From: Ignavibacteriales bacterium
GTDB lineage: Bacteria; Bacteroidota; Ignavibacteria; Ignavibacteriales; SURF-24
DNA: 64,000 nucleotides
Assembly: GCA_026390815.1 (NCBI GenBank)
Contig: JAPLFH010000047.1
Span: 1-64,000 of the forward strand
Direction: 5' to 3'
In this document: positions 7,875-58,893 of the stretch, in pieces
Layout: each line of letters starts with the position of its first letter
Position numbering within the stretch: the first letter of the stretch is position 1
Program-made: the position numbers and the translations under genes
The notes under the pieces: model-generated
What the model saw: the letters and a program-made list of their open reading frames with translations, nothing else
Databases searched by the model: none
Told to the model about the DNA's origin: nothing

Positions 7875-9407
7875 ATGATAGAGCGTTCTGCAGGAATACT
7901 ACTTCATCCTACTTCTTTACCTGGAAAGTTTGGAATAGGTGACCTTGGCGAGGAAGCTTTTAATTTTGTTAATTTCTTAGTTGCAACAGGACAAAAATTG
8001 TGGCAGGTATTTCCATTAGGTCCAACCGGATATGGGGATTCGCCTTATCAATGCTTTTCTGCATTTGCCGGTAATCCATTGTTGATTAGTCCTCAGGTTT
8101 TACTAAAAGAAAATCTGCTTAAAGAGGATGATTTGCAAGTTATTCCTGAATTCAATCCAGTAGAAATTGATTTTGGTAAAGTGATTGATTACAAATATTC
8201 ATTGCTGAATAAAGCCTATCTAAACTTTAAGAAAAGTGAAAAAAAGTTGAAGAATGAGTTCAAGATATTTTGCGAAGCTAACGAAGATTGGCTGGAAGAT
8301 TACGCATTGTTTATGGCTGCAAAAAGTTACCACGGTGGAGTTGTTTGGACTAAGTGGGCTAAGGAAATTGCTTTTAGAAAGGGAAATGCTGTAAATGAAT
8401 GGAAAGAAAAATTATCTGATGAAGTAAATTTTCAAAAATTCGTTCAATTCAATTTCTTTAAGCAGTGGAAAGCAGTAAAAGAATTTGCCAACAATAAGGG
8501 AATTAAAATCATTGGTGATCTGCCGATCTTTATTGCTTATGACAGTGCTGACTTATGGGCAAATAAAAATTTATTCACAGTTGATGATAAAGGTAAACTC
8601 CAATTTGTTGCTGGTGTACCGCCGGATTATTTTAGTGCAACTGGGCAACTTTGGGGAAATCCGCTTTACAAGTGGAATGAAATGGAAAAGGATGATTTCC
8701 AATGGTGGCGAAAAAGAATTACCAAACTTTTAGATGTAATGGATATAATTCGAATTGATCATTTCAGAGGATTTGATGCATATTGGGAAATTCCTGGTGA
8801 TGCACCAACTGCTATTACAGGAAGATGGGTAAAAGCGCCCGGCGAAAAGTTTTTCAGTACAATTGTAAAATACCTTGGTGAGGTTCCTATCATCGCCGAA
8901 GATTTGGGTGTAATAACAAAATCTGTTGAGAAGTTGAGAGATAAGTTTAATTTCCCGGGAATTAAAATTCTTCAGTTTGCATTTGGAACTGGAATGGAAA
9001 GTAAATTCCTGCCGCATAATCATATTAAAAATTGCGTTGTTCATACCGGTTCACACGATAATGACACTACCCGCGCTTTTTTTGAAAAAGCAAAACACGA
9101 TGGAACGGACATGTATTCCTTTGCCCAAAAATATTTGAATTACTATGGTGAAGAAATTTGTCAGGTGTTGATTAGTTCTGCTTATGCATCGGTTGCTAAT
9201 ATTGTTGTTATTCCAATGCAGGATATGTTGAATTTAGGAACCGAAGCGAGAATGAATTTCCCCGGAACTCTTGGTGGTAATTGGACCTGGAGGTTTACCT
9301 GGGATCAGATACCAAAAGATCTAATCAAGATTTATAAAGAGATGACAATAATGTACGAACGCCCTCCAAAGCCAAAAGAAGAAACTGTAATTGATGTAGA
9401 GAATTGA
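7875..9407 (+). CDS. malQ: 4-alpha-glucanotransferase (amylomaltase, GH77)
   Basis: A 510-residue cytoplasmic enzyme that moves alpha-1,4-glucan segments between maltodextrins. GH77 landmarks are present: LHPTSLPG near the N-terminus, GDSPYQCFSAFAGNP around residue 55, RIDHFRGF around 292 with the catalytic aspartate, EDLGVI around 341 with the acid/base glutamate, and HTGSHDNDTTR around 390. The length is typical. GGAG lies just before the ATG. A debranching enzyme at 18485 could feed it linear glucans, so together they suggest glycogen or starch turnover. Confidence 0.95.
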   Translation: MIERSAGILLHPTSLPGKFGIGDLGEEAFNFVNFLVATGQKLWQVFPLGPTGYGDSPYQCFSAFAGNPLLISPQVLLKENLLKEDDLQVIPEFNPVEIDFGKVIDYKYSLLNKAYLNFKKSEKKLKNEFKIFCEANEDWLEDYALFMAAKSYHGGVVWTKWAKEIAFRKGNAVNEWKEKLSDEVNFQKFVQFNFFKQWKAVKEFANNKGIKIIGDLPIFIAYDSADLWANKNLFTVDDKGKLQFVAGVPPDYFSATGQLWGNPLYKWNEMEKDDFQWWRKRITKLLDVMDIIRIDHFRGFDAYWEIPGDAPTAITGRWVKAPGEKFFSTIVKYLGEVPIIAEDLGVITKSVEKLRDKFNFPGIKILQFAFGTGMESKFLPHNHIKNCVVHTGSHDNDTTRAFFEKAKHDGTDMYSFAQKYLNYYGEEICQVLISSAYASVANIVVIPMQDMLNLGTEARMNFPGTLGGNWTWRFTWDQIPKDLIKIYKEMTIMYERPPKPKEETVIDVEN

Positions 9408-18204: not shown

Positions 18205-18337
18205 GAAATTAGAAATTTGAAATTAGAAATTGGAAATTAGAAATTGGAAATTAGGAACTGGAAATTAGAAACTGGAAATTAGAAACCGGAAATTGGAAAT
18301 TAGAAACTGGAAACTGGGAAGTAGAAGTTAGAAAGTT
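18205..18337. repeat. Heptanucleotide tract downstream of the M1 peptidase
   Basis: About nineteen consecutive 7-bp units dominated by GAAATTA and GAAATTG, drifting to GAAACTG, GGAACTG and GAAGTTA at the far end. The register is kept for the full 133 bases. It accounts for most of the 320-base gap between the M1 peptidase and the debranching enzyme; the remaining 140 bases before the next start hold only AT-rich sequence and a presumed promoter. Confidence 0.85.
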
Positions 18338-21294: not shown

Positions 21295-21354
21295 AAAGGT
21301 TCACGACTTCCCATTTCTTCCTAATTTAAAGTAAAACTCAATTATTAAATTTTT

Positions 21355-21389
21355 AATTCGTAATTAAAAATTCGTAATTCATAATTAAC
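21355..21389. repeat. Heptanucleotide tract at the hybrid kinase stop codon
   Basis: Five 7-bp units of the type AATTCGT, AATTAAA and AATTCAT. The kinase stop codon (complement of TTA at 21385-21387) lies within the last unit. Confidence 0.65.
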
Positions 21390-27687: not shown

Positions 27688-29148
27688 ATGAAGTATTTAA
27701 AGATACATTTACTAATAATTTCATTATTGTTTTTCTTTTCCTGCAACAAAGAAATAACAGTTGATCCACCAGAAGAACCGGTTCATACTGGAATAATTTT
27801 TATCGCATCGAATCCAACGCACGCGAAAATATTTTTAGAGAATAGAAATACCGGAAAGTTTACTCCCGATAGTATCCGCTGGCTTAAAGAAGGGATATAT
27901 AAAATATTTTTAAGGTTAGAAGGATGGAAAGACAGCGCATTCATTGTTAATGTAAAAGAGCAACAAAGACAAAACTTTAATATTGATTTTTCATATAATC
28001 CAGCAATGTTTGGTGCAATTGAGTGCAAAACTCATCCTGTTGGAGGACAAATTTTTTTGGATGGCAAGGATTTGCGAAAAACCACGCCTTATACAATCTA
28101 TAATTTACTGCCCGGCTATTACAATCTTGGTTTCCATAAAGATAGATATTGGTTTGATACTCTAACTGTAAAAGTGGAAAGCCAAAAAATAACTTCAATT
28201 TACCGTGTATTAGCTGATACTGCTGTGTGGGTCGCTTATAATAAATCTAATAGCTCAATTCCTTCTAATTTTATTCTTAATGCTGCCATAGACAATGAAA
28301 ATATAATATGGATAGGAACTGATGACAATGGATTTGCTTCATTTAATGGAAAGGAATGGACAAATTACAATAAATCAAATTCGCCCTTGCCTGATAATAG
28401 AATAAATGCTTTGTATTTAGATAAAAACAATAACAAATGGATTGGAACTACAAATTATGGCTTAGTAAAATTTGATGGTATTAACTGGACCATTTACAAT
28501 TCCGCTAATTCTGGTTTACCCGGGGATATGATAACAGCAATTACTTCTGATGAGAATAATAATCTATGGATAGGTACCTATAATAAAGGTGTGGCTGTTC
28601 TTAGAGGAAACGATTGGGAAGTTTTTAATACAACTAATTCCGGTTTGCCAAGTAATTTTATTTCAGCAATAATATTCGATAGAGATGGAACCTTATGGAT
28701 TGGAACCGATAGAAGTGGCATAGTAAAATATGATGGTAACAATTGGACAGTTTATAATTCAGCAAATGCAGATTTACCTCCATCAAATATTTGTTCGTCA
28801 TTAGCAATCGATAATAATGGTATTCTATATGCCGGATTTCTTTATGATTTAGGAAGCCAAATTCCAGGTGGATTATCTAAATACGAAGCGGGCAGTTGGA
28901 CATTAATTCAATCAAATTATATTGATATTTCTACATTAACCATTGATAAGTATAATTATATTTGGGCTGGTTCAGCGATAAACGGATTTGGACTTATCAA
29001 TGGAAGATTTGTGTTCAGGGATGTTTTTAATAAACACAATTCACCAATTACCTCAAACATGGTAAACACAATTGCAGTGGATAAAGAAATGTACAAATGG
29101 ATAGGAACCGGCGGCAATGGATTGATCAAGTATAAAAATTATAGATAA
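27688..29148 (+). CDS. PEGA/Reg_prop beta-propeller lipoprotein, copy 1
   Basis: 486 residues from the ATG at 27688; an upstream TTG would spoil the lipoprotein signal. The signal MKYLKIHLLIISLLFFFSC ends in a lipobox cysteine followed by NKE. Two PEGA-like domains (residues about 33-105 and 106-180; IASNPTHAKIFLENRNTGK and KTHPVGGQIFLDG) precede seven blades of about 40 residues. The blade pattern is W..Y...NS.LP.N.I..I..D..N..WIGT...G...FDG..W, as in the two-component regulator propeller (Reg_prop). There is no kinase or membrane helix, so it is a lipid-anchored propeller that may bind a ligand or a partner. It is paralogous to the genes at 30513 and 35574. Confidence 0.85.
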   Translation: MKYLKIHLLIISLLFFFSCNKEITVDPPEEPVHTGIIFIASNPTHAKIFLENRNTGKFTPDSIRWLKEGIYKIFLRLEGWKDSAFIVNVKEQQRQNFNIDFSYNPAMFGAIECKTHPVGGQIFLDGKDLRKTTPYTIYNLLPGYYNLGFHKDRYWFDTLTVKVESQKITSIYRVLADTAVWVAYNKSNSSIPSNFILNAAIDNENIIWIGTDDNGFASFNGKEWTNYNKSNSPLPDNRINALYLDKNNNKWIGTTNYGLVKFDGINWTIYNSANSGLPGDMITAITSDENNNLWIGTYNKGVAVLRGNDWEVFNTTNSGLPSNFISAIIFDRDGTLWIGTDRSGIVKYDGNNWTVYNSANADLPPSNICSSLAIDNNGILYAGFLYDLGSQIPGGLSKYEAGSWTLIQSNYIDISTLTIDKYNYIWAGSAINGFGLINGRFVFRDVFNKHNSPITSNMVNTIAVDKEMYKWIGTGGNGLIKYKNYR

Positions 29149-29262
29149 TTTTTCGGTTGACAATCACCCAAAATTGAGATATATGACTTAGTTTTATAAT
29201 CACAATGCAGCTTATATAATCGTAATATTTATCTAAATAAAAATTAGAACTCATTTTTTTAG

Positions 29263-30270
29263 TTAATTTTTATAACCAAATGATTCAACATATTTCTTAT
29301 CAAAAAAGAAATACTCACTAGAAATCAGAGAGGTACCCAAAATTCCTATTCCACCAGATACGTTTGTGTAAGTTGATTCATCTAACCTGATTGAGTAATC
29401 ATCCAAATAACCGTTGAGGCTGGAGTAATAATTGGAAAGATTGTAATCAAATTCAAGCAATTCAAACTTAACAATATCAATTAAATAATCAGATTTATCC
29501 GGATCGCCCGCAGAAATTTGTACCATTAAAGAATCAATTGCAGAATAATCGTAGCTAACTGAAGATTCGCGACTATAAGATGGATAAACAGGGAGATTTC
29601 CATTAGCCTTCTTTATATAACGCATCGGAATTTCTATTATAAAAGAATTTTTCGGTGGTGGTATAGAATTTTTTGTATAGTACATAATTAATTTAGGAAA
29701 GTATAGGTTTCCTTCTTGTGCATTCCATGAAATAATCCAACTTTTTCCCCATCGCCATTGATCAATCAAAGTAGTAATTCCGTGATAGAAGGGATATGAA
29801 TATTCAAAACCTTTTGATGAAGGAATTCTGGTTTTTGCTTCAAGGATTTTTCCATCTGGAAGTGTTATAGACAAAGAAAGAGCAGCGCCGTATGTTAAAG
29901 TTAATCCTGCTGCATCTGCTAATTTATAGTAAATCTCCGGCATATAAGGTTTAAATTCTCTGGAATCCAGCGTGTCTTCCAAAAAGCTGTATCCATTGCC
30001 AATTCCATTTATCTTCAAGCGAATTTGTGCTCCGGATATGGATGGTGCAGTTTTGTTATCTTTTGGTGGCGTGTAAGTCGGGTTATCATAAGTTTTTGTT
30101 AGCATTACAATAGGATACAACGGGTAGTATAAATATTGATCAACGGCTATAATACAGTAAAGAATATTTCTTTCTTTAAAATCTTCTTTAGGACTAAAAT
30201 TTTCCTCGCAGGAAATGTTTAAAAATGATAAAGTTATTGCAATTATAAATAAGGGAAGATTTTTTTTCAT
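29263..30270 (-). CDS. DUF4249 family lipoprotein, copy 1
   Basis: 335 residues with a lipoprotein signal (MKKNLPLFIIAITLSFLNISC, then EENFSPKEDF). The family is an extracellular beta-rich protein of Bacteroidota usually encoded next to TonB-dependent receptors, so a SusD-like partner role on the cell surface is the working idea. Similarity to the protein at 34260 is clear at both ends: CEEN.SPK.DFKERNIL at the start and YYSSLNGYLDDYSIRLDESTYTNVSGG at the end. It is transcribed against its neighbours, between two propeller genes. Its ligand is unknown. Confidence 0.78.
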   Translation of the reverse strand: MKKNLPLFIIAITLSFLNISCEENFSPKEDFKERNILYCIIAVDQYLYYPLYPIVMLTKTYDNPTYTPPKDNKTAPSISGAQIRLKINGIGNGYSFLEDTLDSREFKPYMPEIYYKLADAAGLTLTYGAALSLSITLPDGKILEAKTRIPSSKGFEYSYPFYHGITTLIDQWRWGKSWIISWNAQEGNLYFPKLIMYYTKNSIPPPKNSFIIEIPMRYIKKANGNLPVYPSYSRESSVSYDYSAIDSLMVQISAGDPDKSDYLIDIVKFELLEFDYNLSNYYSSLNGYLDDYSIRLDESTYTNVSGGIGILGTSLISSEYFFFDKKYVESFGYKN

Positions 30271-30512
30271 AACCCATCTCTTTGTTTTAAAAATAGCAAA
30301 AAAGGAATTAGTAATAAAGAAATTATTGCGAAATCAAAAACTAAGCTGACAGACCAATAAAACGATAAATTGCATATAATGGAATATTCAAACCGGATGC
30401 AAACCTCAATCATAATTAAATTATATTGCTATACGTAAAAAATAGGTTGACTAAGATTTATCCATGTATTAATATGTTTATGGGATTTATAAAAAAACTA
30501 CAATATGAACCA

Positions 30513-31964
30513 ATGAAGAGCTTCAATATAAAATTAAAGTACATAACAATTTTTGTAGTTGCTCTTATCCTCTCCTGCAACAAAGAAGTTTCAGTTAGTC
30601 CTCCTGAAGAACCTATACATACAGGTTTCGTTTATATTGAATCGAATCCTAATTATGCAAAAATTTATTTGAATGGACGAAATACTGGCAAAGTTACACC
30701 TGATAGTTTGCGATGGTTGGAAGCTGGAAAGCAAACAGTAACTCTTAGACTTACAGGATGGAAAGATTCAACACTTCAATTGAATATTATTGAAAGTGAA
30801 AGATTAAACTTTTTTTTTGATTTTACTAAAAACTTAGCAATGTGTGGTTATATTGATTGTAAAACTCATCCAACTGATGCAGATATATTTCTTAATGACT
30901 CAGCTTTAGGGAAGAAAACACCATATCAAATAAGTAATTTATTCCCTGGTGAATATAAGGTTAAATTTAAAAAGGATCGTTACCTGGATGATAGTATTGA
31001 TGTTACCGTTCAAAGCCAAGCTATAACATCAATTTACAAAGTATTAGTAGATACAACTGTTTGGGTAAATTTTAAGACATCCAATTCAGGATTGCCTTCC
31101 AGTTATATCCTAAGCATAGCTGTAGATAAGAATAATTTAAAATGGATTGGAACAGACGGTGGAGGGCTTGCAGTGTTCGATGAAAAAGACTGGATAATTT
31201 ACGCTACTGATAATTCACCATTGCCTGATAACAGAATAAATGTTTTATATATTGACGATGAAGACAATATATGGATAGGAACGACAAGTGCTGGTCTTGT
31301 AAAATTTTATAATAATAGCTGGACAATCTATGACAAAAACAATTCGGGCTTACCAGCGGACATGATAACAGCGCTAACCAAAGATAAAAATGGTAACCTT
31401 TGGATTGGTACTTACAATAAAGGAGTTGCAGTTTTTAACAGTAACAGTTGGAAGGCATATGACATAGATAATTCTGATTTGCCATCAAATTATATATCAT
31501 CTATTGCTATTATCGATACTAATATTTGGATAGGGACAAGAGAGGGCTTGGTCAATTTCAAACCGGAAGGAAAATCTGTTTTTTATAATTCAACTAATTC
31601 TTCAATTCCAAATAGAATATCTGCACTTGCAGTCGGAGTTTTAGGTGAACTTTATATAGGTACAATTTATATGGGGTCAAATGGTATTGCTATTTTGATA
31701 AATAATGAGTTTAAACTTTTGGATAATATTTTTAACAGCGATATTACAACTATCTCAGTGGATAAATTTAATCATGTTTGGATGGGTTCAAGTTTAAACG
31801 GTTTTGGTTTATTGTTTAATAACATTGGTTTTAAAGGCATTTTTAATAAGTATAATTCACCAATTAATGCTGATGGAGTTAATGCAATCGCCATAGATAA
31901 AAATATGTACAAATGGATTGGAACATATGGTGGTGGTTTGGTAAAGTTTAAGAACTTCAGATGA
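30513..31964 (+). CDS. PEGA/Reg_prop beta-propeller lipoprotein, copy 2
   Basis: 483 residues from the ATG at 30513, chosen because the lipoprotein signal (MKSFNIKLKYITIFVVALILSC) starts there. Upstream in-frame codons would add an unlikely 29-residue leader. Domain order is the same as copies 1 and 3: mature start CNKEVSVSPPEEPIHTGF, two PEGA-like domains, then seven Reg_prop blades with WIGT repeats (WIGTDGGGLAVF, WIGTTSAGLVKF, WIGTYNKGVAVF). The fifth and sixth blades are least conserved, which may mark a specificity face. It precedes the TonB receptor by 73 bases on the same strand and may be cotranscribed with it. Confidence 0.85.
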   Translation: MKSFNIKLKYITIFVVALILSCNKEVSVSPPEEPIHTGFVYIESNPNYAKIYLNGRNTGKVTPDSLRWLEAGKQTVTLRLTGWKDSTLQLNIIESERLNFFFDFTKNLAMCGYIDCKTHPTDADIFLNDSALGKKTPYQISNLFPGEYKVKFKKDRYLDDSIDVTVQSQAITSIYKVLVDTTVWVNFKTSNSGLPSSYILSIAVDKNNLKWIGTDGGGLAVFDEKDWIIYATDNSPLPDNRINVLYIDDEDNIWIGTTSAGLVKFYNNSWTIYDKNNSGLPADMITALTKDKNGNLWIGTYNKGVAVFNSNSWKAYDIDNSDLPSNYISSIAIIDTNIWIGTREGLVNFKPEGKSVFYNSTNSSIPNRISALAVGVLGELYIGTIYMGSNGIAILINNEFKLLDNIFNSDITTISVDKFNHVWMGSSLNGFGLLFNNIGFKGIFNKYNSPINADGVNAIAIDKNMYKWIGTYGGGLVKFKNFR

Positions 31965-32037
31965 AAATAAATCCGAATAAATTTTTCTGTTTACCCTCTT
32001 TTAACTAACTTTGCGTTAAATTTTTATATTAATTGAT

Positions 32038-34263
32038 ATGAATAATAACATACATGTTCTCATACTTCTATTCATTACCATCACTGGATTTGTGTCTGCT
32101 CAAACAGGCACTCTCCGTGGTACAGTAGAAGATTCCACCAGCGGTGAATCGCTTGCATACGTTAATATCCTGATTGAAGGAACAAAACTTGGAATTGCAT
32201 CTGATCTGAATGGTAATTTTACTCTTCCTTCCATTCCCGCAAAAAAAGATTTTGTTGTTAAGATTACTCACGTTGGGTACAGAATCAAAAGAATTCCAAT
32301 AAATCTTACAACTGGAAAGATTACTCAAATTACAATTTCGCTCGTTCCAACTAATTATCAATTGGATGAAATTGAAGCGGTTGGCAAAAGAATATCGAGA
32401 GAGAAAGAAACAGATCTTGGTTTGCAAAGAATGACGATAAAGGAATTAGAGCTTTTACCAAAAGGTGTAGAGACCGATGTAATGCGTTCGCTTCAGCTTA
32501 TACCGGGTGTAAAATCCACAGGCGATGTTTCTGCACGTTATTATGTGCGCGGCGGTTCAAGCGATCAGAATCTGGTTCTGCTCAATGGTGTTTCGGTTTA
32601 CAATCCTTTCCACGCGATGGGGTTGTTCAGCGTTATCGATCCTGAAATGATTAACGTAGTTGAGTTTTATAAAGGCGGCTACACAGCAGAGTTTGGTGAA
32701 CGGTTATCTTCTGTATTAAATCTTGTAACAAAAAACGGAAACCGAAACCGCTATACTGGTTCTGCCAATTTAAGCTTTCTTACAACCAAAGCTTCAGTTG
32801 AAGGACCAATTCCAAACGGATCATTTATTATTACCGGTAGAAAAAGTTTGTTCGATAATGTTCTAAAGAAATTCACCAACTACAAAGATGCACCGTTCGA
32901 TTTCTATGATTTTTCTTTCAAAGCAAATTACTCTACGAATGATGATAAAACATTAACCAGAGTTTCTGTGTTTGGTTTTACCAGCAAAGACCGTTTAAAA
33001 AATGATAATAAACTTAAAGAAGATTTTAGCTGGACCAATAACATCTTTGGAGCAAATTGGTTTCAGGCGTGGGAAAGTCCTCTTTACTCCGAGCTTACAC
33101 TTTCCTGGAGCGGTTTTAATGCAGAAGTTTTTCCTAACCAAAGCAGCGCTCTCCCAAGAAAAAATAAAGTTGATGACATAACCTTAAAAATGGATTTTAA
33201 TTACATCTACGATAGCCGTGACGAACTGCGAGTTGGATACTCAATAAAATCTTTTAAAACAGACTATTACTTTGAAAACTTACGGAATGTAAGAACCACC
33301 ATCAGCGATTTTGGAGCGAGCATTTTTGTTTATGGAAAATACCGGCTTCTTCGCTTTGATGAGTTTGTTGCGGACGCTGGTGTTAGAATAAATGCGGCAC
33401 CACTTGCAAGTAATAATAATTCACGGTTCGAACCAAGATTGAATGCAAAGTTTAATATCAGTCCTTTGCTTTCACTTAAAGTTGCCTGGGGAATTTATTC
33501 GCAGGAGATGGTAACTCTTTCTGATGACAACGATATCATTTCACTCTTTGAACCTTGGATAATTGTTCCGGACTATTTGACTGCTCCATCGGCAATTCAT
33601 TATGTTGTTGGCGCTGATGTTAACCTAACAGAAAATCTTTTATTCAATGTTGAGGCATATTACAAATTACTAAGAAACGTAACAGAATTGAATAAGGAAA
33701 AAGTTAGCGCAGAGGATCCGGACTTAATTCCAAGTAAAGGAGAATCATACGGAGCAGAGTTTATGTTTCAGCTTCAGGAGCAAAGAGTAACAGCAATGCT
33801 TTCGTACTCTCTTAGCTGGGCTTATCGCGAAACGAACAAGTGGCTCTACTATCCGCGTTACGATTACAGGCATCAATTAACTTTTAGCGCAAATTATAAT
33901 TTAGGCAACGATTGGAATATAAGTGGTGTGTGGGTTTTAAGTTCGGGTCAACCGTTTACGCAGATTGAAGGATTTTATGATAAACTTTATTTCGATGATT
34001 TATATTCCCAATGGTTTTTATACGAATCTTATCAACCGTATAAAATTCTGGCAGATAAAAATCTGGGCAGGCTGCCATATTATCACAGGCTCGATTTAAG
34101 TTTATCCAAGAAGTTCAGATTGTTTTTTACAAACTTTTCTTTCAGTGCAAGTGTTATAAACGTTTATGACAGAAAAAATATTTTCTATTTTGAAAGAGAT
34201 ACCGGAAAAAGAGTTAATATGCTTCCATTTTTACCAACAGCTTCTATAAGGGTGGATTTATGA
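32038..34263 (+). CDS. TonB-dependent outer-membrane receptor
   Basis: 741 residues. After a signal peptide (to SAQ near residue 22) comes a CarboxypepD-reg-like beta domain (TLRGTVEDSTSGESLAYVNILIEGT...GYRIKR). The plug domain follows (KGVETDVMRSLQLIPGVKSTGD, then YVRGGSSDQNLVLLNGVSVYNPFH), and a beta-barrel of about 530 residues ends in RVDL. It is shorter than SusC proteins (about 1000 residues), matching the receptors typically paired with DUF4249 lipoproteins. It would import a ligand into the periplasm using TonB/ExbBD energy. The next gene overlaps its stop (ATGA), implying coupled expression with the DUF4249 lipoprotein. No ligand can be inferred. Confidence 0.9.
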   Translation: MNNNIHVLILLFITITGFVSAQTGTLRGTVEDSTSGESLAYVNILIEGTKLGIASDLNGNFTLPSIPAKKDFVVKITHVGYRIKRIPINLTTGKITQITISLVPTNYQLDEIEAVGKRISREKETDLGLQRMTIKELELLPKGVETDVMRSLQLIPGVKSTGDVSARYYVRGGSSDQNLVLLNGVSVYNPFHAMGLFSVIDPEMINVVEFYKGGYTAEFGERLSSVLNLVTKNGNRNRYTGSANLSFLTTKASVEGPIPNGSFIITGRKSLFDNVLKKFTNYKDAPFDFYDFSFKANYSTNDDKTLTRVSVFGFTSKDRLKNDNKLKEDFSWTNNIFGANWFQAWESPLYSELTLSWSGFNAEVFPNQSSALPRKNKVDDITLKMDFNYIYDSRDELRVGYSIKSFKTDYYFENLRNVRTTISDFGASIFVYGKYRLLRFDEFVADAGVRINAAPLASNNNSRFEPRLNAKFNISPLLSLKVAWGIYSQEMVTLSDDNDIISLFEPWIIVPDYLTAPSAIHYVVGADVNLTENLLFNVEAYYKLLRNVTELNKEKVSAEDPDLIPSKGESYGAEFMFQLQEQRVTAMLSYSLSWAYRETNKWLYYPRYDYRHQLTFSANYNLGNDWNISGVWVLSSGQPFTQIEGFYDKLYFDDLYSQWFLYESYQPYKILADKNLGRLPYYHRLDLSLSKKFRLFFTNFSFSASVINVYDRKNIFYFERDTGKRVNMLPFLPTASIRVDL

Positions 34264-35504
34264 AAGTAGAAGATATAAAAAGGGAAAGGGGACAAGGGAC
34301 GAGGGAAATGGGACAAGGGTCGAGAGACAGGGGACAAGGGACGAGAGAAAGGGGACAAGGGACGAGGGAAATGGGACAAGGGTCGAGAGACAGGGGACAA
34401 GTGACGAGGGAAATGGGACAAGGGACGAGGGAAATGGGATTGAGGAATGCGGAAATGGAAGATCATTCACTGTTATCGCCCTATAAAAAAATAAAATCAT
34501 TAAGTAAAAAATATTTATTTCATAAACAATCAATAATCAAGCATCAACCATTTTATATATTAATTTTAGTTCTATCTCTTTGTTCACTCTTTTTGTCTTC
34601 CTGCGAAGAGAATGTGAATCCAAAAGCACCTTTTAGGGATAGATATATTTTAAACTTCATTGTACGCGGAGATACTTCCTATCAAATTGCTGTGTTAACA
34701 CATAGCTATACTGTCAACGGAGTTGATCCTTATGAGAATGAAATTGATCCGGCTATTAAAGATGCTGATATAAAAATCTGGTATGATTCAGATGTTTATA
34801 CAATGAGGGATACAACAATCGCACGGAATGATACATCACGCTATAAAAGTCCGGTCTATTATTATTATTTAAAAAACTTTAAACCCGGTGATGATAAATA
34901 TGTTGAAGTTAAGGCTGAATTGACTAACGGAAGAAGTTTATCATCATTAACAAAAATTCCAGCAAAGATAAGTATTGATTCGGTAGACAGAATGATTCCT
35001 TCAGCAGACAAACCGAATTACACTTTTGCCTGGAAAAGTACAGGTACTGGAATTTATTATTTATCAAGATTCAGATTTACTTATACAATCAGGGAAGGTT
35101 CAACAATTACATGGTACAATAAAGAAGTTCCTATTACTTATAATAGAATTGGAGATCAGGATCTTCCTGTCTTTCCATCAATTACAAAAAATTCAGCTAT
35201 AACTTTTGAAAATTCAGCGCTCGATTCTGCCATGAAAGAAATTTCCAAGGGTGAAACTGATAAAAGTAAATTTGAATTAAAGAAGGCAGAATATGAATTG
35301 TTAGTTTTTGATAAGCCGCTTTCAAATTATTATTCATCAATACATGGTTACCTGGATGATTTTTCTGTACGGATTGATGAAAGTGATTATTCAAATGTTA
35401 CTGGCGGATTTGGCATTTTTGCCTCATATTTAAAACAGATCATCAATGTTACATTTAAGGAAAAATATGTTAAATCATTTGGTTACAGGTATGGATTTGA
35501 TTAA
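34260..35504 (+). CDS. DUF4249 family lipoprotein, copy 2, with repeat-derived N-terminus
   Basis: 414 codons if read from the ATG that overlaps the TonB receptor stop. AAGGGTGG stands at ribosome-binding distance and the frame is open throughout. The first 60 or so residues are a translated 21-bp repeat (heptapeptides like GQGTREM), and the lipoprotein signal (HQPFYILILVLSLCSLFLSSC, Cys115) lies far inside. An internal ATG at 34455 would still leave a 50-residue leader. The mature part matches copy 1 (CEENVNPKAPFRDRYIL; YYSSIHGYLDDFSVRIDES). It is probably the partner lipoprotein of the TonB receptor. The true start is uncertain, and export may depend on starting inside. Confidence 0.75.
   Translation: MKVEDIKRERGQGTREMGQGSRDRGQGTRERGQGTREMGQGSRDRGQVTREMGQGTREMGLRNAEMEDHSLLSPYKKIKSLSKKYLFHKQSIIKHQPFYILILVLSLCSLFLSSCEENVNPKAPFRDRYILNFIVRGDTSYQIAVLTHSYTVNGVDPYENEIDPAIKDADIKIWYDSDVYTMRDTTIARNDTSRYKSPVYYYYLKNFKPGDDKYVEVKAELTNGRSLSSLTKIPAKISIDSVDRMIPSADKPNYTFAWKSTGTGIYYLSRFRFTYTIREGSTITWYNKEVPITYNRIGDQDLPVFPSITKNSAITFENSALDSAMKEISKGETDKSKFELKKAEYELLVFDKPLSNYYSSIHGYLDDFSVRIDESDYSNVTGGFGIFASYLKQIINVTFKEKYVKSFGYRYGFD
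34289..34435. repeat. Seven-copy 21-bp tandem repeat (heptamer-based)
   Basis: Seven uninterrupted 21-bp units, each made of three related 7-bp words such as GGGACAA, GGGACGA and GGGAAAT. The units alternate in three variants in the order A, B, C, A, B, A-like, A. A further heptamer (GGGAAAG, 34282-34288) precedes them. Because 21 is a multiple of three, several frames on both strands stay open. It starts 25 bases after the TonB receptor stop. Confidence 0.95.
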
Positions 35505-35573
35505 AAATATAATGCCGATTTAATTTTATTAAACGGTGTAACAGAATTTAAAATTGTCTATCGCAAAAAAAAT

Positions 35574-37031
35574 ATGAAAAAAAGTCTTTACTTTCTATCT
35601 CTATTCATTTCAGCAATTATTGCTGTCTCCTGTAATAAAGAAGTGTCTGTTAGTCCAGAGGATCCTATTATACATACCGGTTATTTATTTGTAGAATCCA
35701 ATCCCACTAAAGCTGCAATATATCTTAATGGAAAAAATACTGGTAAATTTACGTCTGACAGCATTCGTTGGTTAGAATCTGGAGATTACAGGATTACCCT
35801 TCGCTTAAAAGGCTGGCGCGATTCTGTATTCAAAGTATCAGTTAATGAAAAAATTAAAACTAATCTTGCCATTGACTTTACAACAAATCCTTTAATGTGC
35901 GGAGAAATTGCAGTAACATCCTGGCCAGTTGGTGTTGCTGTTTTTATTAATTCAGAAAACACCGGAAAAGTAACTCCAGCAACAATTAAAAATCTTTTAC
36001 CAGGCAGCTATAAAATTAAATTATTTAAAGAAAGATATTGGGAAGATACTCTAACAGTCGGTGTTCAAAGTCAGATGACAACAACTGTTTTTAGGGCACT
36101 GGCAGATACAGCCGTTTGGGTTGCATATAAAAAAGGTAATTGTCCGTTGCCTTCCAATACAATTACAAGTATATCAGTTGATAAAAATAACGTTAAGTGG
36201 ATAGCTACGGATGGTGCTGGAATTGCTACTTTCGATGATAAAAACTGGACAATTTATAATACAAGCAATTCTCCATTACCGGAAAATCGAATCAGTGTTA
36301 TTTATATCGATCCGCAAGACAACAAGTGGTTTGGAACTTCGAACTTTGGCTTGGTTAAATTTGATGGTTCTAATTGGACTACCTATGATACTTATAATTC
36401 CGGATTACCTTCCAATATGATTATTACTTTAGCAACAGATTTGAATGGAAACTTATGTATCGGAACCTACGATAAAGGTATTGTTGTATTTGATGGAGTA
36501 AACTGGAAGGTTTATAATACTTCAAATTCAGGTATACCCAGCAATATAATTACAGCTTTTACAGTTGATCAAAAAGGGAACTATTGGGTTGGTACAGCAA
36601 TGAGTGGTGTTGCTAAATATGATGGTAAAGAATGGCAAAAATTTAATGATGTCAATGCAAATATCCCAATTATAGTAACAGCGTTGGCAACAGATGGATT
36701 AGGAAATGTTTGGGGAGGATTTACTTCATTCGGTTTATATTCCGGTGGCATATTTAAATATGACGAAGTAAAAGGCTGGTCTTTGTATTCCGGTAGTTTT
36801 AGTGACAGACTTTCTTGCATTGTTCCGGATAGCCATAATTATCTTTGGATCGGTTCTTATAACAACGGAATGGGACTTATTGAAGGCAGATTTATTTATC
36901 GCGATATTTTTAATGGTTCAAACTCACCAATACATAATAACATTGTAAATTCAATTGCAGTGGATAATGGTGGATATAAATGGATTGGAACAAGTGCCGA
37001 TGGATTATTAAAATTCAAAAACAAGAGATAG
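35574..37031 (+). CDS. PEGA/Reg_prop beta-propeller lipoprotein, copy 3
   Basis: 485 residues starting MKKSLYFLSLFISAIIAVSC, a clear lipoprotein signal, then NKEVSVSPEDPIIHTGY. It has the same plan as copies 1 and 2: PEGA-like domains at about 33-105 and 106-180 (SNPTKAAIYLNGKNTGK, SWPVGVAVFINSENTGK), then seven Reg_prop blades. One blade has WIATDGAGIATF and another CIGTYDKGIVVF in place of the usual WIGT. It follows the DUF4249 lipoprotein by 69 bases, so the receptor, DUF4249 and propeller genes from 32038 to 37031 may form one operon. Its function is unknown; surface attachment next to a TonB uptake pair is the main clue. Confidence 0.85.
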   Translation: MKKSLYFLSLFISAIIAVSCNKEVSVSPEDPIIHTGYLFVESNPTKAAIYLNGKNTGKFTSDSIRWLESGDYRITLRLKGWRDSVFKVSVNEKIKTNLAIDFTTNPLMCGEIAVTSWPVGVAVFINSENTGKVTPATIKNLLPGSYKIKLFKERYWEDTLTVGVQSQMTTTVFRALADTAVWVAYKKGNCPLPSNTITSISVDKNNVKWIATDGAGIATFDDKNWTIYNTSNSPLPENRISVIYIDPQDNKWFGTSNFGLVKFDGSNWTTYDTYNSGLPSNMIITLATDLNGNLCIGTYDKGIVVFDGVNWKVYNTSNSGIPSNIITAFTVDQKGNYWVGTAMSGVAKYDGKEWQKFNDVNANIPIIVTALATDGLGNVWGGFTSFGLYSGGIFKYDEVKGWSLYSGSFSDRLSCIVPDSHNYLWIGSYNNGMGLIEGRFIYRDIFNGSNSPIHNNIVNSIAVDNGGYKWIGTSADGLLKFKNKR

Positions 37032-58851: not shown

Positions 58852-58893
58852 AATTTCCAATTTCCAATTTCCAAATCCCAATTCCCAAATAAA
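58852..58893. repeat. Heptanucleotide tract downstream of priA
   Basis: Six units: AATTTCC three times, then AAATCCC, AATTCCC and AAATAAA. The complement is GGAAATT, the same word as in the tract at 18205, here in the opposite orientation relative to the preceding gene. Confidence 0.75.

What the first reader, a model, noticed from the sequence alone, without database searches (positions are those of the whole stretch)
27688..37031. Three PEGA-propeller lipoproteins woven around a TonB/DUF4249 uptake pair
Three paralogues of 486, 483 and 485 residues share a lipobox, the mature start CNKE, two PEGA-like domains and seven Reg_prop blades. They lack the membrane helix and kinase that Reg_prop propellers normally serve in hybrid two-component sensors. 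Here they are detached, lipid-anchored and placed beside two DUF4249 lipoproteins and one TonB receptor; a secreted M28 peptidase opens the block and a two-component system closes it. This looks like a surface sensing or binding module in which the propellers act as ligand-binding or lid proteins for the receptor. The repeated copies with divergent fifth and sixth blades suggest differing specificities. I know of no description of this gene arrangement.
Basis: partly seen in the sequence, partly recalled or inferred. Interest (0 to 1): 0.8.

Follow-up and report, generated by a model that had tools for sequence, protein, structure and literature searches.

The report
Propeller partner of a TonB transporter
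The three lipoproteins belong to a family of seven-bladed propeller proteins that many Ignavibacteriales bacteria encode directly behind one particular outer-membrane transporter and its DUF4249 partner, so they are probably a surface-bound capture or lid subunit of an uptake system whose ligand is unknown.

Summary
Three paralogous lipoproteins (two PEGA domains plus a seven-bladed Reg_prop propeller, predicted at pLDDT 91) lie around a TonB-dependent transporter (TBDT) and two DUF4249 lipoproteins. A second cluster in the same genome has 2 TBDT, 3 DUF4249 and 3 propellers. Across 164 genomes of the order (Ignavibacteriales) the canonical operon is TBDT-DUF4249-propeller. Of 139 full-length propeller genes, 122 lie next to TBDT/DUF4249, 10 stand alone and 7 are undeterminable. 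93 of 95 propeller-bearing genomes also have DUF4249, and 93 of 95 have the TBDT. Propeller linkage follows the TBDT tree (7 changes against 19.3 when shuffled), while propeller-less TBDT-DUF4249 paralogues coexist in the same genomes. The M28 peptidase and two-component system are not conserved neighbours. A citrate-lyase/acs flank looked like a ligand clue, but that block stays together in genomes without the operon, so it is ancestral synteny. Best reading: a third, surface-anchored subunit of a lipoprotein-assisted TonB uptake system, working like BtuB-BtuG or XusA-XusB but with a propeller of another family, built on the DUF4249 pair. Ligand, surface exposure and lid geometry are untested. 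New variant of a known kind.

The parts
27688..29148 (+). PEGA-propeller lipoprotein 1 (P1), 486 aa, lipobox ending FFSC
29263..30270 (-). DUF4249 lipoprotein, 335 aa, divergent from P2
   Evidence: 26.5 bits, just under cut-off; 38% and 33% identity to another copy
30513..31964 (+). PEGA-propeller lipoprotein 2 (P2), 483 aa; 90% identical in DNA to a copy in the second cluster (contig C55), except at the signal peptide and blade 5
32038..34263 (+). TonB-dependent transporter, 741 aa (CarbopepD_reg_2 + Plug), of the DUF4249-linked subfamily
34260..35504 (+). DUF4249 lipoprotein, overlapping the TBDT stop (ATGA); predicted fold two Ig/FN3-like domains
34281..34439 (+). 21-nt (3x7) tandem repeat at the junction, read in frame ahead of the DUF4249 signal peptide; probably not functional protein sequence
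35574..37031 (+). PEGA-propeller lipoprotein 3 (P3), 485 aa, in the canonical place behind DUF4249

Best explanation
This is a tripartite outer-membrane uptake system. The TBDT is the channel. DUF4249 is a lipid-anchored, Ig-like accessory; a DUF4249 protein is already known to work with its TBDT in B. theta. The PEGA-propeller is a second lipid-anchored accessory, tethered by its N-terminal cysteine and linker, with the two PEGA domains as a spacer or docking arm. Its propeller captures the ligand and delivers it to the TBDT, as a lid like BtuG or XusB. Shown here: the gene content, the conserved T-D-P order, its co-inheritance with particular TBDT lineages, the predicted propeller and the lipobox. 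Inferred: surface exposure, physical contact with the TBDT, ligand binding and lid motion. Extra propeller copies in one locus would offer alternative capture subunits for the same transporter.
For: T-D-P order: 76 propellers lie directly 3' of a same-strand DUF4249, median gap 41 bp; the order is seen in most of the 96 loci surveyed. Adjacency: 122 of 139 copies, 10 solo, 7 at contig ends. Co-occurrence in 164 genomes: P with DUF4249 93/95 (Fisher 2e-24), the same for TBDT; the reverse does not hold, as 17 genomes have TBDT and DUF4249 without P. Genomes are related, so the p-values are descriptive. On the TBDT tree linkage to P needs 7 changes against 19.3 shuffled, 0 of 500 as low; propeller-less T-D paralogues exist beside T-D-P in the same genomes, including this one (contig C7). 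Partial Mantel T-P given a syntenic control gene 0.47-0.59, p=0.0005. A second T-D-P cluster in the same genome. Mature start C-[D/E/N]-K-[E/D] (K at +3 in 33 and D/E at +4 in 43 of 52), near the C. canimorsus export signal C-X-K-(D/E)2-X (PMC5080379). Precedents: BtuG and XusB are seven-bladed propeller lipoproteins that cap TBDTs (PMC10404256, PMC13142918), and BT2172/BT2173 is a TBDT-DUF4249 pair with matching mutant effects (PMC11003636).
Against: No interaction, localisation or ligand data exist. The propeller's nearest sequence relatives are sensor ectodomains and PorZ, not BtuG/XusB. Ten copies have no TBDT/DUF4249 of these families in the fetched flanks, so some may act alone or in trans. 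The export signal of Ignavibacteria has not been tested, and the motif here has one acidic residue at +4, not two in a row. Shared operon inheritance alone would also give co-divergence, although a syntenic neighbour is controlled for.
Confidence: 0.6

Rival explanations
1. Sensing module: the propeller is a detached sensor that reports ligand to the neighbouring two-component system or to a hybrid sensor elsewhere, rather than assisting transport.
For: The closest solved relatives are ectodomains of hybrid two-component sensors BT3049, BT4663 and BT4673 (best Z 35.5, rmsd 2.4 over 291 residues). Kinase and response-regulator genes flank both clusters in this genome.
Against: Kinase and regulator genes neighbour only 3 of 96 loci, all in this genome and its near relative G163. 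There is no Y_Y_Y domain or kinase in the lipoprotein. Linkage follows TBDT lineage.
Confidence: 0.15
2. Binding or scaffold protein unrelated to uptake: the propeller helps surface assembly (PorZ-like, type IX secretion) or adhesion, and sits in the operon only for co-expression.
For: PorZ is a profile relative (E 8.8e-17; 65.7 bits, far below its cut-off of 260). Ten copies stand alone.
Against: PorZ is a larger protein (748-758 aa; two propellers and a C-terminal domain, from general knowledge); here there is one propeller, two PEGA domains and a lipid anchor. 122 of 139 copies lie beside TBDT/DUF4249.
Confidence: 0.15
3. Citrate (or metal-citrate) uptake system, because citrate lyase, PrpD, aconitase, isocitrate dehydrogenase and acetyl-CoA synthetase flank the operon in many genomes.
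For: citF within 15 kb of T/D/P in 35 genomes; citF beside 28 and acs beside 29 of 89 surveyed genomes, 13 genera each.
Against: The acs-citF-citE-prpD-acn block stays together in six genomes without T-D-P (G005, G006, G048, G079, G092, G136), and acs lies one gene from citF in this genome, where T-D-P lies elsewhere. citF is in 116 of 164 genomes, with weak association to P (p=0.009). One ancestral site explains the link.
Confidence: 0.1

Closest known systems
BtuB-BtuG (vitamin B12 uptake, Bacteroides; PMC10404256)
   Same: A TBDT and a seven-bladed propeller lipoprotein encoded in one operon; the N-terminal linker is the anchor and the propeller is the lid.
   Different: No sequence relation found; PEGA arm and DUF4249 partner are extra; ligand unknown; another lineage.
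XusA-XusB (xenosiderophore uptake, DUF4374; PMC13142918)
   Same: A seven-bladed propeller surface lipoprotein beside a TBDT, with specificity differing between homologues.
   Different: XusB is DUF4374 with a hook loop; a PepSY reductase was not looked for here; no sequence relation found.
BT2172-BT2173 (TBDT-DUF4249 pair; PMC11003636)
   Same: A TBDT subfamily almost always encoded next to DUF4249, with similar mutant effects.
   Different: No propeller partner is described there; the propeller family was found only in this order in the genomes sampled.
Reg_prop ectodomains of hybrid two-component sensors (BT4663, BT3049) and PorZ
   Same: The same propeller family by sequence and fold.
   Different: Those are larger, with kinase or secretion domains; here one propeller, PEGA domains and a lipid anchor.

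Membership tests
BtuG/XusB propeller lid lipoproteins | seven-bladed beta-propeller | tested here: met
   seven blades, pLDDT 90.8
BtuG/XusB propeller lid lipoproteins | lipoprotein signal | tested here: met
   lipobox in 52 of 72 homologues by a strict pattern
BtuG/XusB propeller lid lipoproteins | encoded with a TonB-dependent transporter | tested here: met
BtuG/XusB propeller lid lipoproteins | sequence membership of BtuG or DUF4374 | tested here: not met
   profile search of PDB chains finds sensors and PorZ but no BtuG/XusB at E<=0.01; no DUF4374 in the Pfam scan
BtuG/XusB propeller lid lipoproteins | caps the TBDT and binds the ligand | not testable with these tools
   no complex prediction or experiment available
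DUF4249-linked TBDT pair | DUF4249 directly behind a TBDT of one subfamily | tested here: met
   D and T co-occur in 109 genomes, 2 and 2 discordant
Hybrid two-component sensors with Reg_prop | Y_Y_Y and kinase domains in the same chain | tested here: not met
   only PEGA and Reg_prop above cut-off
SusC/SusD | SusD-family lipoprotein partner | tested here: not met
   partner is DUF4249, no SusD match; TBDT matches the SusC model only weakly (61.7 against 368)
PorZ (type IX secretion) | full-length match to the PorZ family | tested here: not met
   65.7 bits against cut-off 260; one propeller, two PEGA domains

The most novel reading that the evidence does not exclude
The propellers are exchangeable specificity subunits. 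A single TBDT-DUF4249 channel is served by several propeller lids, and cells move propeller genes between uptake operons by gene conversion while blade 5, in the most variable part of the propeller, is kept or swapped, changing the ligand.
Probability: 0.2. Interest if true: 0.75.

Novelty: new variant of a known kind. Interest (0 to 1): 0.5.

Why it matters
It points to a third component of the DUF4249 transporters, a conserved but barely studied pair, and suggests that propeller-lid uptake arose from a different propeller family in Ignavibacteriales, outside the gut Bacteroides. It gives a defined, testable operon and an evolutionary contrast (T-D with and without propeller in one genome).

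Tried and rejected
1) Citrate as ligand from flanking citF/citE/prpD/acn/acs: rejected as evidence because the block is conserved without the operon. 2) Two-component system and M28 peptidase as module parts: 3 and 2 of 96 loci. 3) Virginiamycin-lyase-like enzyme: good fold match (Z 31), but no invariant histidine in the propeller among the paralogues; not pursued. 4) DUF4249 fold: two Ig/FN3-like domains at moderate confidence (pLDDT 78.8); matches all weak (best Z 7.2). 5) BtuG/XusB do not appear among the listed fold matches; that list is filled by other propellers and proves nothing. 6) A Bacteroidetes-type promoter motif (TTTG...TAnnTTTG) gives one hit, inside a gene. 8) Literature: one paper mentions DUF4249; one unrelated paper holds PEGA domain, lipoprotein and propeller together.

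Full report
What is there. Three ORFs of 486, 483 and 485 aa (27688-29148, 30513-31964, 35574-37031) share a lipobox, the mature start CNKE, PEGA domains and Reg_prop repeats. AlphaFold2 on a 13-sequence alignment gives two PEGA beta-domains and a seven-bladed propeller closed by strand 182-185, pLDDT 90.8. The TBDT (32038-34263) is followed by DUF4249 with a 4-bp overlap and by the third propeller about 70 bp on; a further DUF4249 lies on the minus strand at 29263-30270.

A second cluster in the same genome. On contig C55, one strand reads T-D-P-P-D-(T9SS-tailed protein)-P-D-T. A third locus, on C7, has T-D-D without a propeller.

Order-wide survey. In 164 genomes of the order (named relatives are Ignavibacteriales, Ignavibacteriaceae and Melioribacteraceae) full-length propellers occur in 95, DUF4249 in 111 and the TBDT subfamily in 111. 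P occurs with DUF4249 in 93 of 95 genomes and with TBDT in 93 of 95, while 17 genomes have T and D but no P. I pasted the listed coordinates and measured distances. Of 139 full-length propellers, 112 lie within 15 kb of a listed T or D. The 27 others were fetched and scanned: 10 are adjacent after all (the hit lists had been cut at 150), 7 run into a contig end, 10 are solo in the flanks seen. Four propeller-only hits in longer ORFs were left out. With about 2-4 T-D loci in 4 Mb, chance adjacency would be about 1% (my estimate). Samples of 395 phylum and 294 class genomes give no full-length member outside the order, only propeller-only matches.

Which transporters carry the propeller. On a tree of 103 TBDTs (FastTree) the label 'propeller downstream' changes 7 times against 19.3 in shuffles, none of 500 as low. 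Two clades are almost wholly propeller-less and include paralogues from genomes that also have T-D-P. The link is therefore a property of the transporter lineage, not only of the genome. T, D and P distances correlate beyond a syntenic control gene (partial Mantel T-P 0.47-0.59, p=0.0005).

What is not part of it. The M28 peptidase and the kinase/regulator genes neighbour 2 and 3 of 96 loci.

A ligand clue that failed. Acetyl-CoA synthetase and citF-citE-prpD-aconitase-icdh flank the operon in up to 29 of 89 genomes each (36 of 89 for any gene of the cit block). But citF is in 116 of 164 genomes, and acs and citF stand side by side in genomes without the operon, and one gene apart in this genome, where the operon lies elsewhere. 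The operon sits in, or was lost from, one ancestral intergenic site. The ligand is unknown.

Propeller evolution. P2 here and a copy on C55 are 90% identical in DNA, while flanks are unrelated (47-49%) and the TBDTs of the two clusters are 68-71% identical. Identity falls to 45% at the signal peptide and to 71-72% in codons 361-400 (blade 5), in silent and replacement sites alike. That suggests gene conversion of the body, with an older blade-5 patch; it does not by itself show selection. Across 72 homologues the loops leading into blades 5 and 6 are the least conserved (0.21-0.29 against 0.43-0.49 for blades 1-3).

Location. Homologues start C-[D/E/N]-K-[E/D]-V, near the Capnocytophaga surface-export signal C-X-K-(D/E)2-X (PMC5080379); DUF4249 starts C-[E/D]-[E/D]. 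Surface exposure is inferred.

Mechanism and comparison. Propeller lipoproteins BtuG and XusB cap their TBDTs (PMC10404256, PMC13142918), and DUF4249 works with its TBDT in B. theta (PMC11003636). The anatomy here combines both, with a propeller of another family: by sequence it is nearest to hybrid-sensor ectodomains and PorZ. It works like BtuG/XusB, if the inference holds, but is not a member of either. I found no paper describing the arrangement; the library holds open-licence papers only.

Noticed in passing
window 18200-18334, 21347-21388, 34281-34439, 58852-58888: Tandem repeats with a period of 7 (or multiples) recur at four places; the one at 34281 is read in frame ahead of the DUF4249 signal peptide as RGQGTREMGQG repeats.
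   Followed up: partly
L021 (contig C55) 2923-16468: Second cluster with 2 TBDT, 3 DUF4249, 3 propellers and a T9SS-tailed protein of unknown function (7998-9098) between them.
   Followed up: partly
L264 (contig C6) and many relatives: acs facing citF-citE(ACP-fused)-prpD-homoaconitase-type aconitase-icdh is a conserved block in the order, with or without the transport operon between.
   Followed up: yes
L022 5396-7362: Two neighbouring PEGA lipoproteins on the same contig (251 and 381 aa) whose C-terminal parts are near-copies and do not look like propellers.
   Followed up: no
L134, L135, L138, L139, L142, L145, L150, L152, L154, L157: Solo PEGA-propeller lipoproteins with no TBDT/DUF4249 of these families nearby; partners unknown.
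   Followed up: partly
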